In this document: positions 1-14,133 of the stretch, one piece after another
How the letters are laid out: each line of letters begins with the position of its first letter
Position numbering within the stretch: position 1 is the first letter of the stretch
Assembly: GCF_002150765.1 (NCBI RefSeq)
Contig: NZ_MUYM01000012.1
Span: forward strand, 99,094-163,093
Source of the DNA: Lentzea kentuckyensis
GTDB taxonomy: Bacteria > Actinomycetota > Actinomycetes > Mycobacteriales > Pseudonocardiaceae
Direction of reading: 5' to 3'
DNA: 64,000 nt
The notes under the pieces: model-generated
Seen by the model: the letters and a program-made list of their open reading frames with translations, nothing else
The model's database searches: none
Told to the model about the DNA's origin: nothing
Program-made: the position numbers and the translations under genes

Positions 1-1230
1 TGGCGCTCGTTCATCACGCTGCTCAAGGCCGAGGTGCAGGCGGGCCGGGTGCCGATGTCACGCATCGACGACGCCAACCGCCGCATCCTGACCAAGAAGT
101 TCGAGCTGGGCCTGTTCGAGAAGCCGCTGACCGACCGCTCCTACACGCCTTCGGTCGGCAACGCCGCGCACCGCGCGGTCGCGCGTGAGGCCGTGCGCAA
201 GTCGCAGGTGCTGCTGAAGAACCAGAACGGCGTGCTGCCGTTGCCGAAGACCTCCTCGAAGCTCTTCGTGGCGGGCAAGAGCGCGGACAACATCGGCTAC
301 CAGAGCGGCGGCTGGACCATCTCCTGGCAGGGCGGCAGCGGACCGGTGACGCCGGGAACCACGGTGCTGCAAGGCATCCGCTCGGCCGTGTCGTCCTCGA
401 CCACCGTCACCTACCACCGCAACGGCACGGGCATCGACGGCACCTACCAGGCCGCGGTCGCCGTGATCGGCGAAACCCCGTACGCCGAGGGCAACGGCGA
501 CAAACCCGGCGGCATGGGTCTGGACGCCGAGGACCTCGCGACCCTGAACACGTTGCGCGCGTCCGGCGTCCCGGTCGTGGTGGTGCTCGTGTCCGGACGA
601 CCACTGGACATCGCCGCCCAGCTCCCGGGCTGGCACGCTCTGGTGGCGGCCTGGCTGCCGGGCACCGAGGGCAACGGCGTCGCGGACGTCCTGTTCGGCG
701 ACTACAAACCGACAGGCACGCTGCCGTTCACGTGGATGCAGAGCGCCTCGCAGCAGCCGATCAACGTCGGTGACGGCAAAGCACCGCTGTTCGCCTACGG
801 CACCGGCTTGCAGTTCCCCGCCACCCAGAACGCCTACGCGCTGATCGGCGCCTCCTACTACGACGAACAACGCGGCACACAGGTCGAGCGGTGCACGGAC
901 TCGGGTTGCGGCCAGAACGTCGGCTACCTGACGCCCGGCGACTACGTGGCCTACGCGGACGTCGACTTCGGCGCCACGCCACCGACCTCGGTGACCACGC
1001 GGCTGGCGTCCGGGTCGACCGCGGGTGGGACGTTGCAGTACCGGCTGGACAGCCCGACCGGTCCCCTTGTCGCGACGGTGTCCGCGGCGAGCACCGGCGG
1101 ATGGCAGACGTGGACGAGTCGTACTGCGGCGGCGTCGGGCGCGACCGGCGTGCACCGGCTGTGCCTCGTGGCGACCGGGGGCACGGGCGGTGACCTGGCG
1201 AACGTGAACTGGTTCCAGTTCGGTCGCTAG
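1..1230 (+). CDS. Glycoside hydrolase family 3 beta-glucosidase, C-terminal part with CBM6 module (5' truncated)
   Basis: The reading frame is open from base 1, so the gene begins outside the window. The visible 409 residues start in the linker between the GH3 barrel and the alpha/beta sandwich (RIDDANRRILTKKFELGLF) and run through the whole sandwich domain (KSQVLLKNQNGVLPLPK, then AVIGETPYAEGNGD, a loop that in the family carries the acid/base). The nucleophile Asp lies upstream and cannot be seen. The last 130 residues resemble a family 6 carbohydrate-binding module, ending in VNWFQFGR with a Cys pair near its start. Known family role: extracellular removal of glucose from beta-glucans. The stop codon shares a CTAG with the stop of the convergent SDR gene. 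Confidence 0.9.
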   Translation, partial: WRSFITLLKAEVQAGRVPMSRIDDANRRILTKKFELGLFEKPLTDRSYTPSVGNAAHRAVAREAVRKSQVLLKNQNGVLPLPKTSSKLFVAGKSADNIGYQSGGWTISWQGGSGPVTPGTTVLQGIRSAVSSSTTVTYHRNGTGIDGTYQAAVAVIGETPYAEGNGDKPGGMGLDAEDLATLNTLRASGVPVVVVLVSGRPLDIAAQLPGWHALVAAWLPGTEGNGVADVLFGDYKPTGTLPFTWMQSASQQPINVGDGKAPLFAYGTGLQFPATQNAYALIGASYYDEQRGTQVERCTDSGCGQNVGYLTPGDYVAYADVDFGATPPTSVTTRLASGSTAGGTLQYRLDSPTGPLVATVSAASTGGWQTWTSRTAAASGATGVHRLCLVATGGTGGDLANVNWFQFGR

Positions 1231-2027
1231 CCGATCACTCGCTCGGAGAACTCCCACAGCGCTTCGGCGGCTTCCTCGGTCACCACCGGATGCAGCTTCT
1301 CCGCTCTGGGCACCGCGCCGCGACCTGGTCCGATCAGGGTCGCGGGCGGTGCCTCTTTCGCCGTCGCCGCGTACAGGATCGGCCGGGCGCCCTCCTCGGC
1401 CGAGCGGCCGAGGATCCGGCTCATGGCCGTGCCGACGACCGCCTGGAGGCGCGAACTGTTCTTGGCCTGCATGGAAGTTCTGGCCATGCCGGGGTGGGCC
1501 AGGTAGCTGCCGACGTGCTGGGCGCGGCGATGCAGTTCCAGTCCGAAAAGGACATTGGCCAACTTCGAGTCGGCATACGCGCGGGTGTGCGAGTAACGCT
1601 TCCTGGTGACGCCGAACTGGCCGTACTTGTACATGTACGACGAGACGGTCACCACCCGGTCCAGCTTTGGGAGCAGCAGTCGGGTGAGCGCGAAGTGGCC
1701 GAGGTGGTTGGTGGCGAAGTGGCTTTCGTGGCCTTGCGGGCTGAGGACGTGTGGTTGTCCGGCAATGCCCGCGTTGTTGACCAGGAGGTCGACCTCGTCC
1801 ATTCCGGCGGCGAACCTGCGCACCGAGTCGAGGTCCATCAGGTCGAGTTGGCGCACCTCGGCGGGAAAGTCGACGTTCACCTTCGCCGGGTTGCGGACGG
1901 CCATGATCACCTGGGCGCCGAGTTCGGCCAGTCCGGCGGCTACGACCAGGCCCAGGCCGCTGCCGGCGCCGGTCACGATGGCGGTGCGGCCGGTCTGATC
2001 CGCGAGGTAATCGGATTTCCTATCCAC
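1227..2027 (-). CDS. Short-chain dehydrogenase/reductase
   Basis: 266 residues with a classical SDR fold: TGAGSGLG nucleotide-binding loop near residue 20, LLVNNAGIAG near 80, and the catalytic YADSKLAN near 150. It resembles the retinol dehydrogenase/WW-oxidoreductase-like actinobacterial SDRs, an NAD(P)-dependent group of mostly unknown substrate. The GTG start at 2027 lies 7 nt after a TAGCGT box, so it is probably translated from a leaderless mRNA. It is divergent from the giant NTPase gene at 2079 and convergent with the GH3 gene. Substrate cannot be told from sequence. Confidence 0.85.
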   Translation of the reverse strand: MDRKSDYLADQTGRTAIVTGAGSGLGLVVAAGLAELGAQVIMAVRNPAKVNVDFPAEVRQLDLMDLDSVRRFAAGMDEVDLLVNNAGIAGQPHVLSPQGHESHFATNHLGHFALTRLLLPKLDRVVTVSSYMYKYGQFGVTRKRYSHTRAYADSKLANVLFGLELHRRAQHVGSYLAHPGMARTSMQAKNSSRLQAVVGTAMSRILGRSAEEGARPILYAATAKEAPPATLIGPGRGAVPRAEKLHPVVTEEAAEALWEFSERVIG

Positions 2028-2034
2028 TTATCCG

Positions 2035-2040
2035 ACGCTA
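2035..2040 (-). promoter_or_regulatory. -10 box of leaderless promoter for SDR gene
   Basis: TAGCGT on the minus strand, 7 nt before the GTG start at 2027. No Shine-Dalgarno sequence lies between. Confidence 0.5.
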
Positions 2041-2078
2041 CCAGGTAACGTCTGGGTGCGGGCGATCGATTCCTCGTC

Positions 2079-5000
2079 GTGGCTGGAAGACGACTGGCGG
2101 TGCTGTTCGCGGGCGCGGAGTACGCGAGCGAGGAGTACGTCGCCCTGCCGTTCGCAGCGGAGCGGATCGGACGGCTGGCCGCAGCGCTTGAGCGGTTCGG
2201 GTACGAGTGCCGGACGCTGGTGAACCTCACCGCCCGCCAGATCGAACATACGGTGCTGGAGACGATCTCGGCCACCGACCCCGGCGATGTCTTGATCATT
2301 CACCTGCTCGGGCATGCCACAGTCCAGCCGGAGGGCCGGGCCTGGATGGTCGGCGCGGACGGACGACCAGCCCTCACCTCCCTCCAAGACTGGTTCCGGC
2401 ATGGTGCGACATCGGATCATGTCGAAGTGCTGCTCACGCTGGACCTCGCAGTGGACGGGACTGCCGCCCCCGCCCCGGAACTGCCGGATCCACTTTCGTG
2501 GGTGATGGGCGCGACCGAGGAGCGAAGGACGTTCCACGGCGACTTCACCTCAGCGATGGCAGACGTCCTCGACCTGTTCGCTGACGATGCGACCGGTCTG
2601 AACCCCAGCGCAGCCAACATTCCGTTGCGCCAGGTGATAGATGCGATCGACCTGAGGATGAGTCGCAGCCGTTCAGTCCCCGTCCGATGGTCCGCGGAAA
2701 TCCCTACCAGCGATCTCTCGTTCTTCCCGAATCCTCACTTCGCACCGGCACAGCCGTTCCACGGTGAGCGTGCGTGGTCGGTGTCAGTGCTTCAACGGGA
2801 CAGTGGACCGATCTTCGCGGTCGGCGTCACCAACGGAATCGTTCTGTGCAATGTGGACGGTGTACCCATCGACCACTCGGTCACGTCCGCGGTCCTGGCG
2901 GTGGCGGGCATTCCGGACAGAAACGTGATGCTGTGCGGCGGTATCGATGGCAGCGTAACGATGCGCTCGTGGCCTGAGCTCTCTGTAGCGGCGCAACTGG
3001 ACCCGCACGACGCACAGGTCAACAGCGTCGCCGTGACGACCACGTCTGGCCGAGTTCTCGCGGCATCTGCCAGTGACGACTTGACGGTGCGGGTGTACGA
3101 GCTGAGTCCCACGATCAGGTTGCTTCATGTGCTCGCGCCAGGAGCAGGCGCGGTTAACACGGTTTCGTTCACCGATGACGATCGGCCGGCGGTTGCCTGC
3201 GGCACAAGCGACGGTGTGCTGGTGATGTACGACGTCAACACTGGTGCGGAGGTATGGCGAAACAAGGTCGCCGGGGCGATCCACAGCCTCGCGGCCGGAG
3301 CCGTCGGTCGGCCGTCGCTGCTGTGCGCCCAGGACAACGGCTCGCTGCTCATGTGGAACCGCGTGACCAAACAACTCATCACGGCCATACCCGGCAACTC
3401 CGGCGCGCTGAGAACCGTGGCACTGGTTGACGACGGCCGGACCGCCATCGTGGGTGGGGACAGCGGCGAGATCGCGGTCGTCGACCTGATCGCTGGAAAC
3501 GTCCCTCACTCGATCGACCTCGGCGCCGGGGTGATCTGGTCGGTCGCGGTGTACGAGTCCGCACAGGGACCCGCGGTGGTGGCCGCCACGGACAACGGGA
3601 TCCGGACCGTGCCGCTGGAGTCCACCACCCCACCGTCCGCGCCCAGGAGCTATGCGGGGTTTGTCGCGGACGTCGCTACCGGGGTGGACCAGCTGGGCAT
3701 CACGGGCGAGGTCAACACGTTGTGCGACCTCGTGCTGGCCAAGGAGATCAAGCCACCGCTGTCGATCGGCCTGTTCGGCGACTGGGGCACCGGCAAGTCG
3801 TTCTTCATGAACAAGATGCGCGACCGCATCGAGCTGCTGGCCGCTGAGTCGCAGACCGCGGGGCTGGAGGGGCGCGAGTCGGCGTTGTGCGCGCATGTCT
3901 GCCAGATCGAGTTCAACGCCTGGCACTACATCGACGTCGATCTGTGGGCGAGTCTGGCCGCCACGATCTTCGATCGGCTCGCCGCGTCCGAGACGTCCAC
4001 CGTGCTGGCGGACCTGCCGTCGGTGCGGCGGCTGCGCGACGACCTCGTGCGCAAGCGCCGGCAGACGCGTGACCTGCTCGACGACGCCAACGAGAAGTTG
4101 CAGCAGGAGACGCCTATCGGCGTTCGCGACGTGCTCACGACCGAGACGGTCCGCGAGGTCGCGGGGGACGCGGCGAAGCAGGTCGACAAGGCGTTGACCG
4201 CGCTGGGAGTTCCCGAGAGCAAGCGCGCCCAGACCGACCTGCGCGAGGTCGCGGAGACAACCGGAACACTGTGGCGGAACCTGGTGTACCTGTTCAAGCG
4301 GACGAAGTGGCCGTTGAGGGTGCTGATCGTGCTGGGAGTCGTGCTGGCCGTCGCGGCGCCGCCGATCATCGGTGCGGTGCTCGGAGACTCCCGTGCCGCG
4401 CTCACCGCGACCATCGCCTCCTACGTGCTCTACGGGTTGGGGGCGCTCACGTTCGTCAAGCCGTACCTGGACAAGGCGGCGCGGGCGGTCGGGCGGGTCA
4501 AGGAGCTGGTGGACAGCGTCGACGAACGGCTGCGGGCGCCGGTGGAGGCGCGCCGGGACACGTTGAAGCAACGCATGGTCGAGATCGACCAGGAGATCCT
4601 CGGGCTGGACAGCCGCATCCAGGCGTTGCGCCAGGGCAACAGCATCAGCGCGTTCGCCCTCGAACGCAAGGAGGCCGACCACTACCGGCGGCACGAGGGC
4701 ATGGTCGCGACCCTGCGGCGCGACCTCGAGGAGATGAGCCGGCGCCTCACCGCCACGAGCACCCGGGGACGGTCGGCTGATCTCGAACGGATCGTGCTCT
4801 ACATCGACGACCTCGACCGGTGCCCGCCGAAGCGGGTGGTGGAGGTGTTGCAGGCCATCCATCTGCTGCTGGCGTTCCCGTTGTTCGTGGTGGTCGTCGG
4901 GGTGGACTCGCGGTGGCTGTTGCGGTCGCTCGACATGTTCCTCCGCGAGAAGGAAGGCCAGGAGGACCCGCGCACGGCCTCCACACCGCAGAACTACCTG

Positions 5001-6548
5001 GAGAAGATCTTCCAGATCTCCCAGTGCCTGCGGCGGATGTCGCCCACCGGGTACGCCGACCTGATCAGCGCCAACGTCGGCCAGCTCGAAGTCGAGCAAC
5101 AGCCGGTCGAGGTGGTGGCGTCGGACCAGGCCGTGGCCACCGAACAGGCCACTGTGGACGAAGAACCACGGCAGGTCGAGCCCGTCCAGGCGTCGGCGCC
5201 GCGGCGGTCCGCTCCCCCGGCGATCGTCGCCCGCGAGGTCAGGACCTATCGCGACGGCGGACGGATCATGCACCTGCGGTTCAACTCCGCGATGCTGGAA
5301 TCCGTTGCCTCGACCGGAGTCTTCACCCGTCGATCTCTGCTGGACGCGGATCCGCACGAAGACACCGAAACGCTGGTCGAGAACGAGACACCGTCCGCCG
5401 TGATTCCTACCCAGGGCAAGCTGTTGCTGTGGCTCGGTCCGTCCGGCGCGGTGCTCATCGACACGGAGACCAAGGAGCGCCGCGAGGTCAAGCCGGCGAC
5501 GGGGAAATTCGTCAACGGGGTCGTCTCGCCACAAACAGGCGAGGCGATCCTGGCGACCGCCCAACATCCCGGCCAGTACCTGTGGAATCTGTCGGCCGAC
5601 TCGGGCGAGCGGCTGGCAGAAGAGCGAATGCGGCCGCTCGCACTCTCGCGTTCGTGGCAGATCGACGGGGGCGCCGAGCGAAACGTCCGAGTGATCGACA
5701 GGCGCACCGAGCAACTCTTCGTCAATGTCGAGATCCCGAGCCGAGCCACCACGGCGCTGATCGATCCGGCCGAGCAGTGGATGGCGGTGCTCGACTCGGA
5801 ACGAAGGCTGCACCTCCGCGGCCTGACCGACAGCGATGCGACCACGGAGCAGGTCGCGGAGGGCGTGACGTTCCTGCGGTTCGGTCCGGGCGGCGTGATC
5901 GCGACCGTCGGCGGCGGCAAGGTGTCGGTGTGGGACTGCGCCACCCGTACGCTGCGCGTCGAGGTGCCGGCCACCGGAGAGATCACCTCCATCGCCTTCT
6001 CGTCCGACGGCGGCAGGCTCGCCACGGGCAACAAGGAAGGCGAGATCAGAACCTGGGTCATCCACAACCGCAAGCCCGTGGTGGACCTCTCGGCGAGCGC
6101 GCTGCGGCTCACCGAGGCGGAGCGGGCCATGATCGTCGCGGTGCGGCCGTTCATCGAGACACCGCGGTCGGCCAAGCGCCTGATCAACACCTACCGGTTG
6201 TTGCGGGCCGCGCTGTCCGAGGCCGACCTGGCCGCGTTGCGCGAGGACGGGCATCGGGCGGTGTTGCTGCTGCTCGGCGTGCTGCTGGGTGAGCCGGAGG
6301 AGGCGACCGCGCTGATGCGGGACCTGGTCGGCGACCGCTCGCTGCCGCCGACCTTCACCGCGCTCATCCGCCGGCACGGCACGCCTCGGCGGGACGGCAC
6401 GAGGAATCGTCGCAGGGCTGTCCCGTCGGGGCTCGAGGCCAAGGTCGCCGAGATCATCAAGGCCACCGGGACCACGAACGACGCCATCGAGTACCGGCGG
6501 TGGGCGCACGTCGTCGCCCGTTATTCGTTCCGCACGCTGGATCTCTGA
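2079..6548 (+). CDS. KAP family P-loop NTPase with caspase-like N-terminus and two beta-propeller regions
   Basis: 1489 residues. Residues 1-180 look like a caspase/C14 fold: the His motif is IIHLLGH (His79), but the strand that should end in the catalytic Cys reads TLDLAVDG, with Ala124 where Cys is expected. Residues about 230-510 are WD40-like repeats. The KAP NTPase begins near 545: Walker A GDWGTGKS (567-574), two membrane helices (about 744-768 and 775-795) followed by coiled coil, Walker B IVLYIDDLDRCPP (905-917). After an acidic linker (about 1006-1050) a second propeller-like stretch (about 1060-1340) interrupts the NTPase, whose C-terminal PRSAKRLINTYRLLRA follows at 1362. Known: KAP NTPases are membrane-linked, and one (PifA) blocks phage T7. 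Inferred: a membrane-anchored sensor or scaffold, possibly in defence or signalling. The first 530 codons have clearly more A/T at third positions than the NTPase core. Start is GTG; no clear SD. The three following ORFs are probably co-transcribed. Confidence 0.85.
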   Translation: MAGRRLAVLFAGAEYASEEYVALPFAAERIGRLAAALERFGYECRTLVNLTARQIEHTVLETISATDPGDVLIIHLLGHATVQPEGRAWMVGADGRPALTSLQDWFRHGATSDHVEVLLTLDLAVDGTAAPAPELPDPLSWVMGATEERRTFHGDFTSAMADVLDLFADDATGLNPSAANIPLRQVIDAIDLRMSRSRSVPVRWSAEIPTSDLSFFPNPHFAPAQPFHGERAWSVSVLQRDSGPIFAVGVTNGIVLCNVDGVPIDHSVTSAVLAVAGIPDRNVMLCGGIDGSVTMRSWPELSVAAQLDPHDAQVNSVAVTTTSGRVLAASASDDLTVRVYELSPTIRLLHVLAPGAGAVNTVSFTDDDRPAVACGTSDGVLVMYDVNTGAEVWRNKVAGAIHSLAAGAVGRPSLLCAQDNGSLLMWNRVTKQLITAIPGNSGALRTVALVDDGRTAIVGGDSGEIAVVDLIAGNVPHSIDLGAGVIWSVAVYESAQGPAVVAATDNGIRTVPLESTTPPSAPRSYAGFVADVATGVDQLGITGEVNTLCDLVLAKEIKPPLSIGLFGDWGTGKSFFMNKMRDRIELLAAESQTAGLEGRESALCAHVCQIEFNAWHYIDVDLWASLAATIFDRLAASETSTVLADLPSVRRLRDDLVRKRRQTRDLLDDANEKLQQETPIGVRDVLTTETVREVAGDAAKQVDKALTALGVPESKRAQTDLREVAETTGTLWRNLVYLFKRTKWPLRVLIVLGVVLAVAAPPIIGAVLGDSRAALTATIASYVLYGLGALTFVKPYLDKAARAVGRVKELVDSVDERLRAPVEARRDTLKQRMVEIDQEILGLDSRIQALRQGNSISAFALERKEADHYRRHEGMVATLRRDLEEMSRRLTATSTRGRSADLERIVLYIDDLDRCPPKRVVEVLQAIHLLLAFPLFVVVVGVDSRWLLRSLDMFLREKEGQEDPRTASTPQNYLEKIFQISQCLRRMSPTGYADLISANVGQLEVEQQPVEVVASDQAVATEQATVDEEPRQVEPVQASAPRRSAPPAIVAREVRTYRDGGRIMHLRFNSAMLESVASTGVFTRRSLLDADPHEDTETLVENETPSAVIPTQGKLLLWLGPSGAVLIDTETKERREVKPATGKFVNGVVSPQTGEAILATAQHPGQYLWNLSADSGERLAEERMRPLALSRSWQIDGGAERNVRVIDRRTEQLFVNVEIPSRATTALIDPAEQWMAVLDSERRLHLRGLTDSDATTEQVAEGVTFLRFGPGGVIATVGGGKVSVWDCATRTLRVEVPATGEITSIAFSSDGGRLATGNKEGEIRTWVIHNRKPVVDLSASALRLTEAERAMIVAVRPFIETPRSAKRLINTYRLLRAALSEADLAALREDGHRAVLLLLGVLLGEPEEATALMRDLVGDRSLPPTFTALIRRHGTPRRDGTRNRRRAVPSGLEAKVAEIIKATGTTNDAIEYRRWAHVVARYSFRTLDL

Positions 6549-6614
6549 CCACCCAGCGGAACAACCGTCCACTTGTGCGGGCGCGCGCCGGCAACGGATG
6601 GTTACTGTCCGCCT

Positions 6615-7217
6615 GTGTCATCCGACAAGCACGAGGCGCAGGACCCGAGCGGGTTCATCGTCATCACCGTCGATCGTTCGCGGCTGGTGACGAACGTGCG
6701 GATCCGCCCGCACTGGACCGAGCACATCAAGCCGGAGGCCTTCCCTGCCGCGCTGTACAACACCTACGTGACCGCGGTGCAGCGTGCGCTCGCGGCCGAC
6801 ACCGGCAACACCCCGGCGAGTCCGCCGAGCAGTCCCGCGGCGACTGCGGAGGACCTCACCGGACTGCCGCCGGAGGAGCAGATCGCCAGGATGAAGTCGT
6901 GGCTCGACGACCTCGACGACGAGCGCGAGGCGGTGCTGCGCTCGGCCCGGCAGGCACCGCGGCTCGTCGACACGGAGGTCCGGAGCCCGCTCGGCTATCT
7001 CACGCTGCGGATGCGCGCGGGCGGCCCGATCGCGATCACCGCCGATCCGCACGTCCTGCGCAACCCGTCGGAAACCGTGCTGTCCGACGAGATCCTGCAG
7101 ATGTTCGTCCAGGCAGGACTCGGGACGGCGGCTCCCCAACGCCCGCGCACCACCAGGCCGCACGAGGCGGACGACGACTACTTCGAGGCCGTGCACGTGT
7201 TCGACGACAGGGACTGA
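6615..7217 (+). CDS. YbaB/EbfC-like small protein
   Basis: 200 residues from the GTG at 6615; a GTG at 6573 would add 14 unconvincing residues. The N-terminus FIVITVDRSRLVTNVRI, followed by HWTEHIKPEAFPAALYNTY, matches the beta-strand then helix pattern of YbaB/EbfC-like proteins, which in actinomycetes often precede WXG100-type genes. The middle holds an LPPEEQIARMKSWLDDLDDER helix, probably coiled coil; the tail is acidic. It starts 67 nt after the giant KAP gene and ends 1 nt before the next gene, so the three small genes form a tight unit. Function unknown; family assignment is by pattern, not by strong motif. Confidence 0.65.
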   Translation: MSSDKHEAQDPSGFIVITVDRSRLVTNVRIRPHWTEHIKPEAFPAALYNTYVTAVQRALAADTGNTPASPPSSPAATAEDLTGLPPEEQIARMKSWLDDLDDEREAVLRSARQAPRLVDTEVRSPLGYLTLRMRAGGPIAITADPHVLRNPSETVLSDEILQMFVQAGLGTAAPQRPRTTRPHEADDDYFEAVHVFDDRD

Positions 7218-7218
7218 C

Positions 7219-7566
7219 ATGAGCACCAGCAAGACCGGCTACCAGGTCGTCACCCGGAACCTCAGGGACGAGGCCAAGTTCTGGCAGGACCGCGCGGACA
7301 GGACCTTCGCGGTGATCCGGGCCGTGCAGAGCATGACGTTGAGCCGCAGCGCGTTCGCCGTCGCGGACTTCAGCCTGCTGTCGGTGCCCAACGCCGATCT
7401 CGAGTCGCGCTTCTACGAGGACTTCCGCGCCTTCATCGAGAAGACCCTGCAGGGCGCCTACACCGAGTTCGTCCAGGTCGACAAGGCGTTGCGCGACATC
7501 GCGGACGAGTACGACCGGGTCGAGGACACGACCAAGCTCGACATCGGCAAGTTCTACCACGCCTGA
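7219..7566 (+). CDS. EspC/WXG100-like small helical protein
   Basis: 115 residues, almost wholly alpha-helical. It has the size and tail of ESX-type partner proteins: the C-terminus ALRDIADEYDRVEDT contains YDRVE, matching the YxxxD/E export signal of type VII substrates. There is no signal peptide or membrane segment. It sits one base after the YbaB-like gene and six bases before the WXG-like gene, which fits a partner of the latter. No ESX ATPase or membrane channel gene is in the window, so if exported it must use a channel encoded elsewhere. Confidence 0.6.
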   Translation: MSTSKTGYQVVTRNLRDEAKFWQDRADRTFAVIRAVQSMTLSRSAFAVADFSLLSVPNADLESRFYEDFRAFIEKTLQGAYTEFVQVDKALRDIADEYDRVEDTTKLDIGKFYHA

Positions 7567-7572
7567 GGAACG

Positions 7573-8304
7573 ATGACGCCCACCATCAGCACCGAGGACA
7601 TGACGTCCATTCTGGACCGCAGCTACGACGGACTGGAGGAGCTGCTCCAGAAGTGCACCGAGAAGTTCAACGCCGCCATCCATCACGTCAACGAGTGGCG
7701 GTACGTGCTCACTCCCGTGATGGACCGGATCCACGGATACCTCGAACTGGTCCGGGAAGGCCTGCGCAAGCTGGAGGCACTCGCGCAGACCGCATGGCGC
7801 CACCACGTGCCCGTCGCGTCGCTGATCGTGCAGTCGTTCAACTGGATCAGCGACGTGAAGAACCCCGTGGTGGGCTTCAACCACCCGAAGACGAACCTGG
7901 CCTACGAGTGGGAGGGCAAGGCCGCCACCGCCTACTGGGACAAGGTGACGGCGCAGAACGACGCGAGCGCGGTCGTGGCGGCCAAGGCCGACGAGGTCAG
8001 CAAGTTCCTCATGGACATCGCCACGGCCAACGTCGGCTACATGACCACCCTGGTCAGGATGGCGACGAAGTTCCTGGCGAAGTTCGTCGAGGTCGCCTGC
8101 GAGACGGTGGGAGTGGTGACGATCCCGAACGCGATCGAGAAGCTCGCCGGCGGGATCGGCGCCCTCACCGAGGAGTACCTGGGGCTGATGGCGGACAGCG
8201 CCAAGAGGATCGTCGAGGGCTGCGCCCGGCTGCGGACGCTCAGCAGTCTCATGAGCGACGTCAAGCTGCCCGGCGGGCAGTGGCCGCAGGCGGTCACCGG
8301 CTGA
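7573..8304 (+). CDS. WXG-motif helical protein, putative type VII-like substrate or partner
   Basis: 243 residues. Helical throughout, with a central YEWEGKAATAYWDK (Trp113-Glu-Gly115) like the helix-turn-helix hinge of WXG100 proteins, and a later stretch FLAKFVEVACETVGVVTIPNAI that is hydrophobic enough to insert in a membrane. A GAGGA ribosome site lies 5 nt before the ATG. No toxin domain follows the WXG region, unlike LXG or polymorphic toxins. Last gene of the unit started by the KAP gene; its 3' end overlaps the convergent MFS gene by 11 bp. Function not known. Confidence 0.6.
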   Translation: MTPTISTEDMTSILDRSYDGLEELLQKCTEKFNAAIHHVNEWRYVLTPVMDRIHGYLELVREGLRKLEALAQTAWRHHVPVASLIVQSFNWISDVKNPVVGFNHPKTNLAYEWEGKAATAYWDKVTAQNDASAVVAAKADEVSKFLMDIATANVGYMTTLVRMATKFLAKFVEVACETVGVVTIPNAIEKLAGGIGALTEEYLGLMADSAKRIVEGCARLRTLSSLMSDVKLPGGQWPQAVTG

Positions 8305-9535
8305 GCTTGGTCTCGCGCCGCAGCACCGGCGTCACCCACGCCAGCACGACGCCCACCAGCAGCACCGCCAGACCGGCCACGAGTCCGGCCCGCGGATCGC
8401 CCGCCGCGACCGACAACGCACCCGCGAGGGCCGCGCCGAGTGGCTGGCCGAGGCCCCACGCGATCATCCGGCCGGTGGTGTTCACCCGCGACTGGAGTTC
8501 CGCCGGGCACACCTGCTGGCGGTAGGTGATCCCGTTGATGACCACGGCGGAACTGGCCGCGCCCCAGTACCCGATCGCCAGGCACGTGACGATCCAGTGC
8601 GGGCTCATGAGCACGAACAGGCCGCCCAGCACGGACAACGGCAACGCGGCGAGCGCCAGCCGAGCCCCGCCCCAGCGCTCGGTCAGTGTCGGCAGCACCC
8701 TGGACGCGATGATCGCGCCCACGCCCCAGCTGCTGAACAACGCCGCGAGCCGCACGTCACCGCGCGGCGCGACGCCCAGCACGCGGTCGGCGAACGGCAC
8801 GAGCACGGCCATCCAGCCTCCGATCGCGACCGAGTGCGTGGCGCCGACCAGCGTGAGGGTGCGGATGATCGGTTCGCGCCAGAGGAAGCGCAGTCCTTCC
8901 CGCACGTCCGCGACGATCTCGCCGGCGCCGCGCACCGGGCGTGGGTTCGCCATGCTGCTGGCGATGCCGCGCAACAACAACGCCGATCCCACGGCGGTCA
9001 GCGCGTTCACCGCCAGAAGTGCCGCCGGGGCGATGACCGCCACCAACAGACCGGTGAGACCCGGCACCACGAGTTCGATGACGGTCGTGCGCCCGTAGAG
9101 CGTCGAATAGGCGACCGTCAGCCGGTCCTTGCCTACCAGCGCGGGCAGGGCGCCGAAGTTGGCCGCGTCGAAGAACACGAACGCCGTCTGCGTGGCGAAC
9201 GCCACCAGCACGACGTGCGGGGCGCTCAAGCCACCGGCCAGCCACGCCAGCGGAACGCTGAGCAGCACCCCGGCGACGGCGAAGTCCAGCGCCACCATCA
9301 TCTTCCGGCGGTCCAGCCGATCCGCGAGCGCGCCCGCCAGCAGGCCGAACACCAGGTACGGCAACGCTTCCGCGGCCGTGACCGCCGACGTCCACCCCGC
9401 GGAGCCGGTCAGCTGGTAGACGAGGACCGGCAGTGCCACCGCGGACACCACGGCGCCCGCGACCGACAACACGCGTGCCGACAGGTAACGGCTGAAGTCG
9501 CGGTCGGCTGCGTCGAGGTCCCCCGTGCTCGCCAC
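8294..9535 (-). CDS. MFS transporter (EntS-like exporter)
   Basis: 413 residues, 12 predicted membrane segments. Loop 2-3 reads GALADRLDRRKMMV, the MFS signature. The overall pattern (short N-terminus, RYLSARVLSVAG, then LVYQLTGS) is that of the MFS_3/enterobactin-exporter-like group, usually drug or siderophore exporters. GTG start at 9535 with a TATTCT box 6 nt upstream suggests leaderless expression. Substrate unknown; no biosynthetic genes adjoin it. Confidence 0.85.
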   Translation of the reverse strand: MASTGDLDAADRDFSRYLSARVLSVAGAVVSAVALPVLVYQLTGSAGWTSAVTAAEALPYLVFGLLAGALADRLDRRKMMVALDFAVAGVLLSVPLAWLAGGLSAPHVVLVAFATQTAFVFFDAANFGALPALVGKDRLTVAYSTLYGRTTVIELVVPGLTGLLVAVIAPAALLAVNALTAVGSALLLRGIASSMANPRPVRGAGEIVADVREGLRFLWREPIIRTLTLVGATHSVAIGGWMAVLVPFADRVLGVAPRGDVRLAALFSSWGVGAIIASRVLPTLTERWGGARLALAALPLSVLGGLFVLMSPHWIVTCLAIGYWGAASSAVVINGITYRQQVCPAELQSRVNTTGRMIAWGLGQPLGAALAGALSVAAGDPRAGLVAGLAVLLVGVVLAWVTPVLRRETKLSR

Positions 9536-12862: not shown

Positions 12863-13015
12863 ATGGGTACCACGACCCTCGAACTCAACGAGGAAGAGCT
12901 GATCCTGCTCCGGCACGCGCTGCGCCACTACCTGTCGGAGTTCGGTCATGAGGAGGCCGACATCCTGCGGAAGGCTCGCGCGCTGCTGGGCAAGCTGCCC
13001 GTGCCGGCCAAGTAA
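12863..13015 (+). CDS. Small acidic helical protein, 50 residues
   Basis: Reads MGTTTLELNEEELILLRHAL and ends KLPVPAK. One amphipathic helix with leucine spacing followed by a second helix, no Cys, no signal peptide: probably a small cytosolic protein of unknown role. Support for reality: a good TAACAT box at the right distance, typical codon use, and amino-acid composition far from that of a random high-GC frame. Its last 70 bp overlap the 3' end of the convergent GT87 gene. Confidence 0.55.
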   Translation: MGTTTLELNEEELILLRHALRHYLSEFGHEEADILRKARALLGKLPVPAK

Positions 13016-14133
13016 CCGGCAGGGTCCAGAACGTCGCCGCGGACCGGCGACCGATCCCGCATGGCCTTGATCGCGCACCAGACCAGGAACGCCAGGCCCA
13101 GCCACACGTAGGCGTTGCCGATCAGGTGCTGCCACCAGGCCCACGCGAGTTCCTTGTCGCCCGTCGCCGGGAGCAGCCAGTGCGGGCCGACGGCGAACAC
13201 CGCGCCCACCGCGATCCGCACCCAGCCGTGCAGGAGCAGCAGGGCGGGAGCGATCCACACCCAGTGGTGCGACCAGGACACCGGCGAGATCAGCAACCCC
13301 GCGGCGGCGACGGCCACCAGTGCCGTGAGGTCGTCGCGCAACCGTGGCAGCACCAGCACGGTCACCGCCAGCACGAGCACGCAGAGCACCAGCCACACCG
13401 ACTCGGGCGCGCCCAGCCGGAACAGCAGGCCGCGCAACGACTGGTTCGCGGTGTAGGCGAGGCCGCCGACGCGTTGCGGGTCGAGCATCGCCTCGAACCA
13501 GAACTGCTTCGACTGGCCCGGTGCGAGCACCCAGCCGATCAGGCCGGCGCCGGCGAACGTGCCGACGGCGGTCAGCGCGGGCCTCCACCGCTTGCGGGAC
13601 AGGAAGAACAGCACGAAGATCGCCGGCGTCAGCTTGATCGCGGCGGCGATTCCGACCAGCATTCCCCGTGGCCACGGCGTGCGCGGCAGCAGGCAGTCGG
13701 CGGCGACGAAACCGATCAGGATCATGTTGATCTGACCGAGATCCAGGCCGCCGCGCAGGGGTTCGAGCAGCAGGCACAGCGAGGCGAGGCCAAGGCCCAC
13801 CTGGACGCGCTGGGCCGCCGCGGTACACGCCGCCGTGAACAACGCGATGCCGGCCGCCGTGAAGAGCACGGCGATGACCGGCAACGGTAATGGGGTGAGC
13901 CCGCTGAACAACATCGCCGCGAACGGCGGATACGTGAACGGCAGACCGAGGGGTGCCGTGAAGTCAGCGGTGTAGAGGTCCGTGCCGGCCCGCCACGCCT
14001 CGCCGCCCGCCAGATAGACGCGCAGGTCGAGAAGGCCGGAACTGAGGCTCCGCACGCAGATCCAGGTCAACGTCACGGCCGCGGCCGCACCCCAGACCTT
14101 GCGGAGATCGACACGGGACACTTGAGCCAGCAC
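12946..14133 (-). CDS. GT87 family polyprenyl-phosphate-mannose alpha-mannosyltransferase, membrane
   Basis: 395 residues with about ten membrane helices. The N-terminal loop LRVYLAGGEAWRAGTDLYTADF with its DLRVY and later FTYPPFAAML is typical of the DUF2029/GT87 GT-C enzymes (PimE-like), which add mannose from a polyprenyl carrier on the outer face of the membrane; the first loop Asp is the expected catalytic residue. GTG start at 14133 with AAAGG 7 nt before. It stands alone; acceptor (glycolipid or protein) unknown. Confidence 0.8.
   Translation of the reverse strand: MLAQVSRVDLRKVWGAAAAVTLTWICVRSLSSGLLDLRVYLAGGEAWRAGTDLYTADFTAPLGLPFTYPPFAAMLFSGLTPLPLPVIAVLFTAAGIALFTAACTAAAQRVQVGLGLASLCLLLEPLRGGLDLGQINMILIGFVAADCLLPRTPWPRGMLVGIAAAIKLTPAIFVLFFLSRKRWRPALTAVGTFAGAGLIGWVLAPGQSKQFWFEAMLDPQRVGGLAYTANQSLRGLLFRLGAPESVWLVLCVLVLAVTVLVLPRLRDDLTALVAVAAAGLLISPVSWSHHWVWIAPALLLLHGWVRIAVGAVFAVGPHWLLPATGDKELAWAWWQHLIGNAYVWLGLAFLVWCAIKAMRDRSPVRGDVLDPAGYLAGTGSLPSSARAFRRMSASS

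What the first reader, a model, noticed from the sequence alone, without database searches (positions are those of the whole stretch)
2079..8304. Giant caspase-like/propeller/KAP NTPase with three YbaB/EspC/WXG-like partners: candidate undescribed system
One protein joins a caspase-like domain, a beta-propeller, a membrane-anchored KAP NTPase and a second propeller, followed within 67 nt by three closely spaced small genes with type VII-like features. The parts are those of intracellular recognition machines (sensor repeats, NTPase switch, protease-like effector fold). I know of no described system with this set. A role in phage defence or membrane stress is inference; KAP proteins such as PifA give precedent.
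Basis: partly seen in the sequence, partly recalled or inferred. Interest (0 to 1): 0.85.

Follow-up and report, generated by a model that had tools for sequence, protein, structure and literature searches.

The report
Dead-caspase KAP switch beside unrelated cassette
A soil actinomycete carries a very large, probably membrane-bound switch protein, built like the machines that sense infection and trigger cell death but with its protease-like part apparently disabled, and the three small secretion-type genes beside it seem to belong to a different gene set.

Summary
The big protein is real and was read well: caspase-like domain, WD40 propeller, KAP NTPase with a hydrophobic segment, and a second propeller, which is inserted inside the KAP domain. 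The claimed four-gene system is not supported. The three small genes are a separate cassette (YbaB-like, EspC-like, WxG-like), in that order in 23 of 29 other loci, none with a KAP hit; none of 80 KAP loci and none of 15 KAP neighbourhoods carries it. New here: the caspase-like domain has lost its catalytic cysteine (Ala124; Ala and Ser in two homologues), while all 26 readable caspase-like relatives keep it. On the same chassis (four members found) a Saccharothrix protein carries a different, intact EACC1-type caspase; the domain trees conflict, so the N-terminal domain was exchanged. In Lentzea the gene sits at a variable site that in three other genomes holds TPR-CHAT (caspase-like) genes. 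Best reading: a rare single-gene, probably membrane-bound conflict or cell-death switch with a pseudo-caspase adaptor. Function is inferred, not shown.

The parts
2079..6548 (+). KAP protein, 1489 aa: pseudo-caspase, propeller, KAP NTPase with inserted propeller
2079..2753 (+). Caspase-like domain (residues 1-225): His79 kept (codon 2313-2315), catalytic Cys position is Ala124 (codon 2448-2450)
2754..3632 (+). WD40-type propeller 1 (about residues 226-518)
3651..5108 (+). KAP NTPase, first part (residues 525-1010): Walker A 3777-3800, hydrophobic segment 4320-4376, Walker B 4803-4823
5220..6068 (+). Second propeller (about residues 1048-1330), inserted inside the KAP domain
   Evidence: also in P0005 and P0007; the L. 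aerocolonigenes copy is cut before this part
6081..6545 (+). KAP NTPase, C-terminal part with RPFIETPRSAKRLINTYRLLR
6573..7217 (+). Small gene 1, YbaB-like; probable true start GTG 6615. Separate cassette, judged not part of the KAP system
7219..7566 (+). Small gene 2, EspC-like with YxxxD/E motif. Separate cassette
7573..8304 (+). Small gene 3, WXG100/EspA-EspE-like with WEG at residues 113-115. Separate cassette

Best explanation
The gene at 2079-6548 is a single-gene, probably membrane-anchored NTP-dependent switch of the bacterial conflict/cell-death kind. Proposed order: the two propellers bind a ligand or partner; this is read by the KAP P-loop NTPase, in which one propeller is built into the NTPase itself; NTP-driven clustering at the membrane brings the N-terminal domains together. 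In Saccharothrix obliqua that domain is an intact EACC1-type caspase and would be switched on by proximity. In Lentzea and Streptomyces it is a pseudo-caspase of another clade, and would act as an adaptor or inhibitor for a catalytic caspase made elsewhere; the Lentzea host encodes candidates with the dyad (a caspase-STAND-WD40 protein on C218, an EACC1-type caspase on C46) and a further EACC1-type hit on C235. The three small genes are an ESX-type substrate cassette that landed or arose downstream in one lineage and is not needed for the switch. Shown: architecture, loss of the Cys, domain exchange (by tree conflict), independence of the cassette, variable genomic site. Inferred: ligand sensing, clustering, adaptor role, defence or cell death.
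For: Architecture. KAP part: the four chassis proteins form one group at 100/99 with S. obliqua nested inside, whereas their caspase-like domains split, S. obliqua with EACC1-type domains across a 100/100 branch and the other three together at 99/97; S. obliqua scores 148.6 bits with NF047832, cut-off 140. Cys position Ala, Ala, Ser in the three; in 27 relatives outside the KAP proteins the His is kept in 27 of 27 and the Cys in 26 of 26 with letters there. Five of five of those relatives that I opened have caspase motif, P-loop and WD40-like C-terminus (Pfam WD40/propeller and AAA matches for four of these and for the host's C218 copy). Cassette independence. Site next to the GH3 gene variable: KAP in 2 of 14, TPR-CHAT within 4.5 kb in 3 of 14 loci of the genus. 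Streptomyces copy has transposase genes upstream. Rarity: 3 of 390 family genomes at 60% identity or more, only the host itself in 394 class genomes at 1e-70.
Against: No experiment; no ligand, partner or phenotype known. The pseudo-caspase might be an inert relic. Only four chassis members, one cut by a contig end. PADLOC gives only partial KAP matches (QatA 53.5, PifA 38 bits). The three TPR-CHAT genes may be one insertion and I ran no background count, so the site argument rests on few events. W and S. obliqua are long branches in the caspase tree (1.62, 1.54).
Confidence: 0.5

Rival explanations
1. The KAP protein acts by itself on the membrane or by membrane-linked exclusion, as PifA is thought to do (recalled); the caspase-like domain is a dead relic and plays no part.
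For: Hydrophobic segment in the KAP domain in all four homologues; the KAP core is far better kept than the caspase-like domain (G230: 69% against 39%); Cys lost.
Against: The domain has been kept, with its His, in three species since the common ancestor of the Streptomyces and Lentzea copies, and was replaced in a fourth rather than lost.
Confidence: 0.27
2. Four-gene defence or membrane-stress system as proposed by the first reader.
For: Same strand, 66 nt between the KAP stop and the probable start of the first small gene; no convincing terminator between them (two terminator-like hits in 1200-8500 against 2.3 in shuffles, one of them inside the KAP frame at 6496-6518); G240 keeps traces of the same junction.
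Against: 0 of 80 and 0 of 15 KAP loci with the cassette; 0 of 29 and 0 of 10 cassette loci with a KAP hit; the cassette has its own usual fourth gene, a DUF3558-like lipoprotein, downstream in 17 of 29 loci, which the window lacks.
Confidence: 0.07
3. A developmental or housekeeping signalling protein of multicellular actinomycetes with no role in conflict.
For: Propeller and NTPase proteins of this general make are many in this genome (one search lists 16 matches including the gene itself, most of them to the propellers).
Against: Rare and patchy, in a variable site, with domain exchange, which is unlike a housekeeping gene.
Confidence: 0.14

Closest known systems
EACC1-caspase two-gene conflict system (System 4 of Kaur et al. 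2020, PMC7159879; section 33 read, other passages seen)
   Same: Actinobacterial; N-terminal caspase-superfamily domain fused to variable C-terminal parts, among them STAND NTPases and repeats; at least a third with membrane helices. The S. obliqua homologue has this caspase type.
   Different: No EACC1 hit at the KAP genes that I looked at; the window caspase-like domain is of another clade and lacks the Cys; the whole word KAP does not occur in that paper's main text.
Single-chain caspase-NTPase-WD40 proteins (APAF-1-like order) of this bacterial family, as in the host's C218 protein
   Same: Same clade of caspase-like domain, central NTPase, WD40 propeller.
   Different: AAA/STAND-type NTPase instead of KAP, Cys kept.
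KAP NTPases QatA and PifA
   Same: KAP P-loop core (Pfam, PADLOC).
   Different: QatA equivalog score 69 against 600; N-terminal caspase-like domain and propellers are not part of those proteins (recalled).
Mycobacterial ESX-1 EspA/EspC/EspD and EspE/EspF/EspH sets (PMC6107294, PMC6319747; passages seen, abstract of the second)
   Same: For the small genes: WxG substrate, YxxxD/E partner and a YbaB-like protein; EspH, predicted YbaB-like, is proposed as chaperone of EspE/EspF.
   Different: Profile similarity is only marginal; gene order differs (recalled); a DUF3558-like lipoprotein follows in 17 of 29 loci of this family, not in the window.

Membership tests
KAP NTPase | KAP_NTPase profile above cut-off, Walker A and B | tested here: met
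   80.6 bits against 20; GDWGTGKS at 567, IDDLDRC at 909
KAP NTPase | Membrane segment inserted in the NTPase domain | tested here: inconclusive
   Hydropathy only: one segment at 748-766 in the window, one or two in P0005, P0006, P0007; insertion in the membrane not tested
EACC1-caspase system | Caspase of the EACC1-associated type with His-Cys dyad | tested here: not met
   17.7 bits against 140; Ala at the Cys position. The S. obliqua homologue meets it
EACC1-caspase system | EACC1 gene or domain next to the caspase protein | tested here: inconclusive
   Upstream genes: SDR on the other strand (window), STAS gene (S. obliqua), no EACC1 hit; other small frames were only listed; EACC1 encoded elsewhere was not excluded
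Active caspase | Catalytic cysteine | tested here: not met
   Ala124; Ala in L. aerocolonigenes, Ser in Streptomyces
Caspase fold | Sequence or structure relation to caspases | tested here: met
   17-row family profile to solved caspases E 1.3e-4; Peptidase_C14 over cut-off in P0007; order of strands and helices in the model. The structure search did not test this part
Qat system | QatA equivalog score | tested here: not met
   69 bits against 600
ESX-type substrate pair with YbaB-like chaperone (small genes) | WxG motif in one, YxxxD/E in the other | tested here: met
   YxxxD/E in 23 of 23 aligned and 3 of 3 further members; WxG in 23 of 24 aligned and 4 of 4 further members that reach the site, two more do not reach it
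ESX-type substrate pair with YbaB-like chaperone (small genes) | Recognised profiles | tested here: inconclusive
   At E 0.1: WXG100 in 12 of 24 (best 3.9e-5), EspC in 5 of 23 (6.8e-5), YbaB in 13 of 21 (8.7e-5); the window copies stay below cut-off
ESX-type substrate pair with YbaB-like chaperone (small genes) | Secretion by a type VII system | not testable with these tools
   The host has two EccC matches over cut-off, on C188 and C184; secretion needs an experiment
   0 of 80 and 0 of 15 KAP loci, 0 of 29 and 0 of 10 cassette loci

The most novel reading that the evidence does not exclude
A bacterial inflammasome-like chassis (propeller, then a KAP NTPase with a second propeller built into it) on which the caspase position is an exchangeable socket: some lineages carry an active EACC1-type caspase, others a pseudo-caspase of a different clade that works in trans with host caspases, as cFLIP-like pseudo-caspases do in animals (recalled comparison).
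Probability: 0.3. Interest if true: 0.75.

Novelty: new variant of a known kind. Interest (0 to 1): 0.5.

Why it matters
If true, bacteria would be using natural pseudo-caspases as regulators on a conserved sensor-NTPase chassis, and the pair Lentzea (Cys lost) against Saccharothrix (dyad intact) on the same chassis makes this directly testable. Separating the small-gene cassette keeps a four-gene system that the linkage data do not support out of the record.

Tried and rejected
Four-gene system: set aside on linkage counts (one search showed only hits over 45 bits, so I repeated it without that filter). I first took the lost residue to be a Cys-to-Leu change (note); the alignment with LDLC-type relatives showed that the catalytic position is the next residue, Ala124. 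The structure search with the N-terminal model was filled by propellers and did not test the caspase-like part; the KAP model (mean pLDDT 66.6) likewise gave propellers in the rows shown. A PDB sequence search with the S. obliqua caspase domain gave seven hits at E 0.038-0.07 to an unrelated bacterial toxin, taken as chance and not followed. Cassette profiles against PDB: for the WxG family EsxB at E 0.39-0.47 among unrelated chains at similar or better E, for the EspC-like family nothing relevant. Plasmids: one distant KAP match for P0001 at 1e-30, none for P0004 at 1e-5. Promoter and terminator scan uninformative. Promicromonospora L217 looked like a fifth chassis member, but its propeller repeats lie in separate frames before the KAP part and its KAP part has no room for an inserted propeller. 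What follows the KAP gene in L. aerocolonigenes cannot be seen: the contig ends inside it and the rest was not found in the assembly. In print: searches listed no paper on this architecture; only open-licence PMC papers are searched there. The GTDB scan used two short peptide patterns and kept the best 80 of 83, so chassis members could be missed.

Rows dropped: L264, L251 and L260 from the caspase tree; L264 has no letters at the Cys position. YbaB alignment: L021, L024, L028, L033, L034, L035 left out by me, L032 for a stop codon, L029 and L038 had no hit. EspC alignment: L021, L024, L035 left out by me, L028, L029, L033, L038 had no hit. WxG alignment: L021, L024, L028, L035 left out by me, L029 and L038 are partial. 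The 17-row caspase profile leaves out L251, L255, L260, L261, L264-L271 and L273; L272 is the same place as L236. In one search KAP hits under 60 bits were not printed; one search found none at E 0.001 in the ten cassette loci.

Full report
1. What is there. The window lies in a 10.2 Mb genome (G000, contig C24). A 1489-aa frame at 2079-6548 is followed by three small frames. Pfam puts KAP_NTPase well over its cut-off and many WD40 models on two stretches, about 267-515 and about 1260-1340. AlphaFold models show a beta-alpha domain (1-225), a propeller (226-518; Z 37.0 to the WD40 domain 5yzv), the KAP core, and a beta-rich stretch at about 1048-1330 followed by the helical end of the KAP domain (mean pLDDT of this second model only 66.6). 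The second propeller is thus an insertion inside the KAP domain. By motif distance, 48 other KAP proteins of the GTDB scan have 144-261 residues between Walker B and the PR..KR motif; S. obliqua has 442 and Streptomyces 479, the window 452.

2. The caspase-like domain. The window domain scores only 17.7 bits with the EACC1-type caspase model, the L. aerocolonigenes one 20.5. It is nevertheless a caspase relative: its Streptomyces counterpart passes Peptidase_C14, and a 17-row family profile finds solved caspases at E 1.3e-4 and 3.1e-4 (metacaspase-4 only at 0.014). In the family search 27 of 390 genomes hold a match at E 1e-5 or better. Of the 27 matches outside the window and G230 (L247-L273), 27 of 27 keep the His and 26 of 26 with letters there keep the Cys. 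The window protein has Ala, L. aerocolonigenes Ala, Streptomyces sp. GESEQ-35 Ser. The Saccharothrix obliqua homologue (P0005) has both residues and passes the EACC1-type model (148.6 against 140).

3. Domain exchange. In a tree of the caspase-like domains the S. obliqua one lies with EACC1-type domains, parted from the others by a 100/100 branch; window, L. aerocolonigenes and Streptomyces form one group at 99/97 within the other type (W and S. obliqua are long branches). In a tree of the KAP part, with the inserted propeller left out, all four are one group at 100/99, with Streptomyces outermost and S. obliqua inside. The simplest history is a pseudo-caspase at the base and its replacement by an active-type caspase in the S. 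obliqua line; two separate replacements are not excluded. Five relatives of the pseudo-caspase that I opened (of 27) all have a P-loop motif after the caspase motif and a WD40-like C-terminus; Pfam finds propeller and AAA matches in the four of these that were scanned and in the host's own C218 copy, some of them below cut-off. The host also has two caspases over the EACC1-type cut-off, on C46 and C235; the C46 protein carries an EACC1 domain.

4. Rarity and surroundings of the KAP protein. Matches to the KAP core at E 1e-15 or better occur in 95 of 390 family genomes, but only three reach 60% identity (the host, G230 at 69%, G067 at 61%); in 394 genomes drawn from the class only the host matches at 1e-70. 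The GTDB scan gave 80 loci, of which L156-L158 are of the chassis. Among the neighbours I looked at none is shared by the four loci: SDR and cassette in the window, GH3 in L. aerocolonigenes (one side only), catalase, STAS and glutamine amidotransferase in S. obliqua, transposases upstream in Streptomyces. This argues for a single-gene system.

5. The site. In G231 the GH3 gene and the MFS gene that flank the window's block stand about 50 bp apart, so SDR, KAP and cassette are extra in the window or lost in G231. GH3 is found in 14 of 24 genus genomes at E 1e-150. On its right side lie: the KAP gene in 2; a TPR-CHAT or CHAT (caspase-like) gene within 4.5 kb in 3 (G250, G229, G240); the homologue of 12946-14133 in 6; a cellulase in 2; MFS in 1. 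Five of 14 thus hold a caspase-superfamily protein, but the three CHAT genes may be one event and I ran no background count.

6. The small genes. They are a cassette of their own. P0004 matches 74 of 390 family genomes at E 0.001, many of these weakly. Of the 29 best other loci, 23 have P0002-P0003-P0004 in order, two have P0003-P0004-P0002, and four lack a hit to at least one; 17 have a DUF3558-like lipoprotein gene downstream (26.5 bits against a cut-off of 34.1), for which the window has no match; none has a KAP hit within 1.5 kb. Ten loci read with about 6 kb on each side, where the contig allowed, show the three genes and no KAP. YxxxD/E is present in 23 of 23 aligned members and 3 of 3 others, WxG in 23 of 24 aligned and 4 of 4 others that reach the site. 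EspC, WXG100 and YbaB models match part of the members. The host has two EccC matches over cut-off. Passages of PMC6107294 and PMC6319747 describe the parallel in mycobacteria: a WxG substrate (EspE/EspA), a YxxxD/E partner (EspF/EspC) and EspH, predicted YbaB-like and proposed as chaperone. So the likely role is an ESX-type substrate pair with its chaperone; this is inference.

7. Against my reading. G240 retains 36 bp matching 6547-6582 at 92% beside a P0004 remnant, so KAP and cassette were neighbours already in an ancestor shared with G240, or travelled together. The L. aerocolonigenes KAP is cut by a contig end, so its downstream side is unseen, though no P0004 match was found in that assembly. 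Co-transcription in the window is possible given the spacing. None of this makes the pair recurrent.

8. Known or new. PMC7159879 (section 33 read, passages seen) describes the EACC1-caspase system with STAND NTPases and repeats as variable parts. PMC8195603 (passages) says that KAP can displace STAND NTPases in related systems. PMC10907252 (passages) lists KAP among the NTPases of diversified sensor proteins. The kind is therefore known; the KAP-with-inserted-propeller chassis, the pseudo-caspase and the exchange did not turn up in what I searched.

Noticed in passing
L146:914-3388, L147:5101-7653, L121:14883-16457: CHAT (caspase-like) genes near the GH3 gene in three other genomes of the genus, with TPR in the first two; the G240 copy (L121) is followed by further fragments of the same kind up to the contig end.
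   Followed up: partly
L121:14466-14884: Remnant of the KAP-cassette junction and of the P0004 3' end in G240, near an SDR gene and a MmyB-like regulator: looks like a deletion derivative of the window's block.
   Followed up: partly
L236:6895-10698: Host protein of 1267 aa with caspase-like domain (His and Cys kept), AAA/STAND-type NTPase and WD40 repeats: an APAF-1-like order in one chain.
   Followed up: partly
L039:7804-9496: Second copy of the YbaB-EspC-WxG cassette in the host, on the same contig (C188) as an EccC gene but about 88 kb away.
   Followed up: partly
L163, L171, L172 (N-terminal ends of the KAP frames): Other KAP proteins carry other N-terminal domains that read like TIR domains (by eye, not scanned), which would fit KAP as a general platform.
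   Followed up: no
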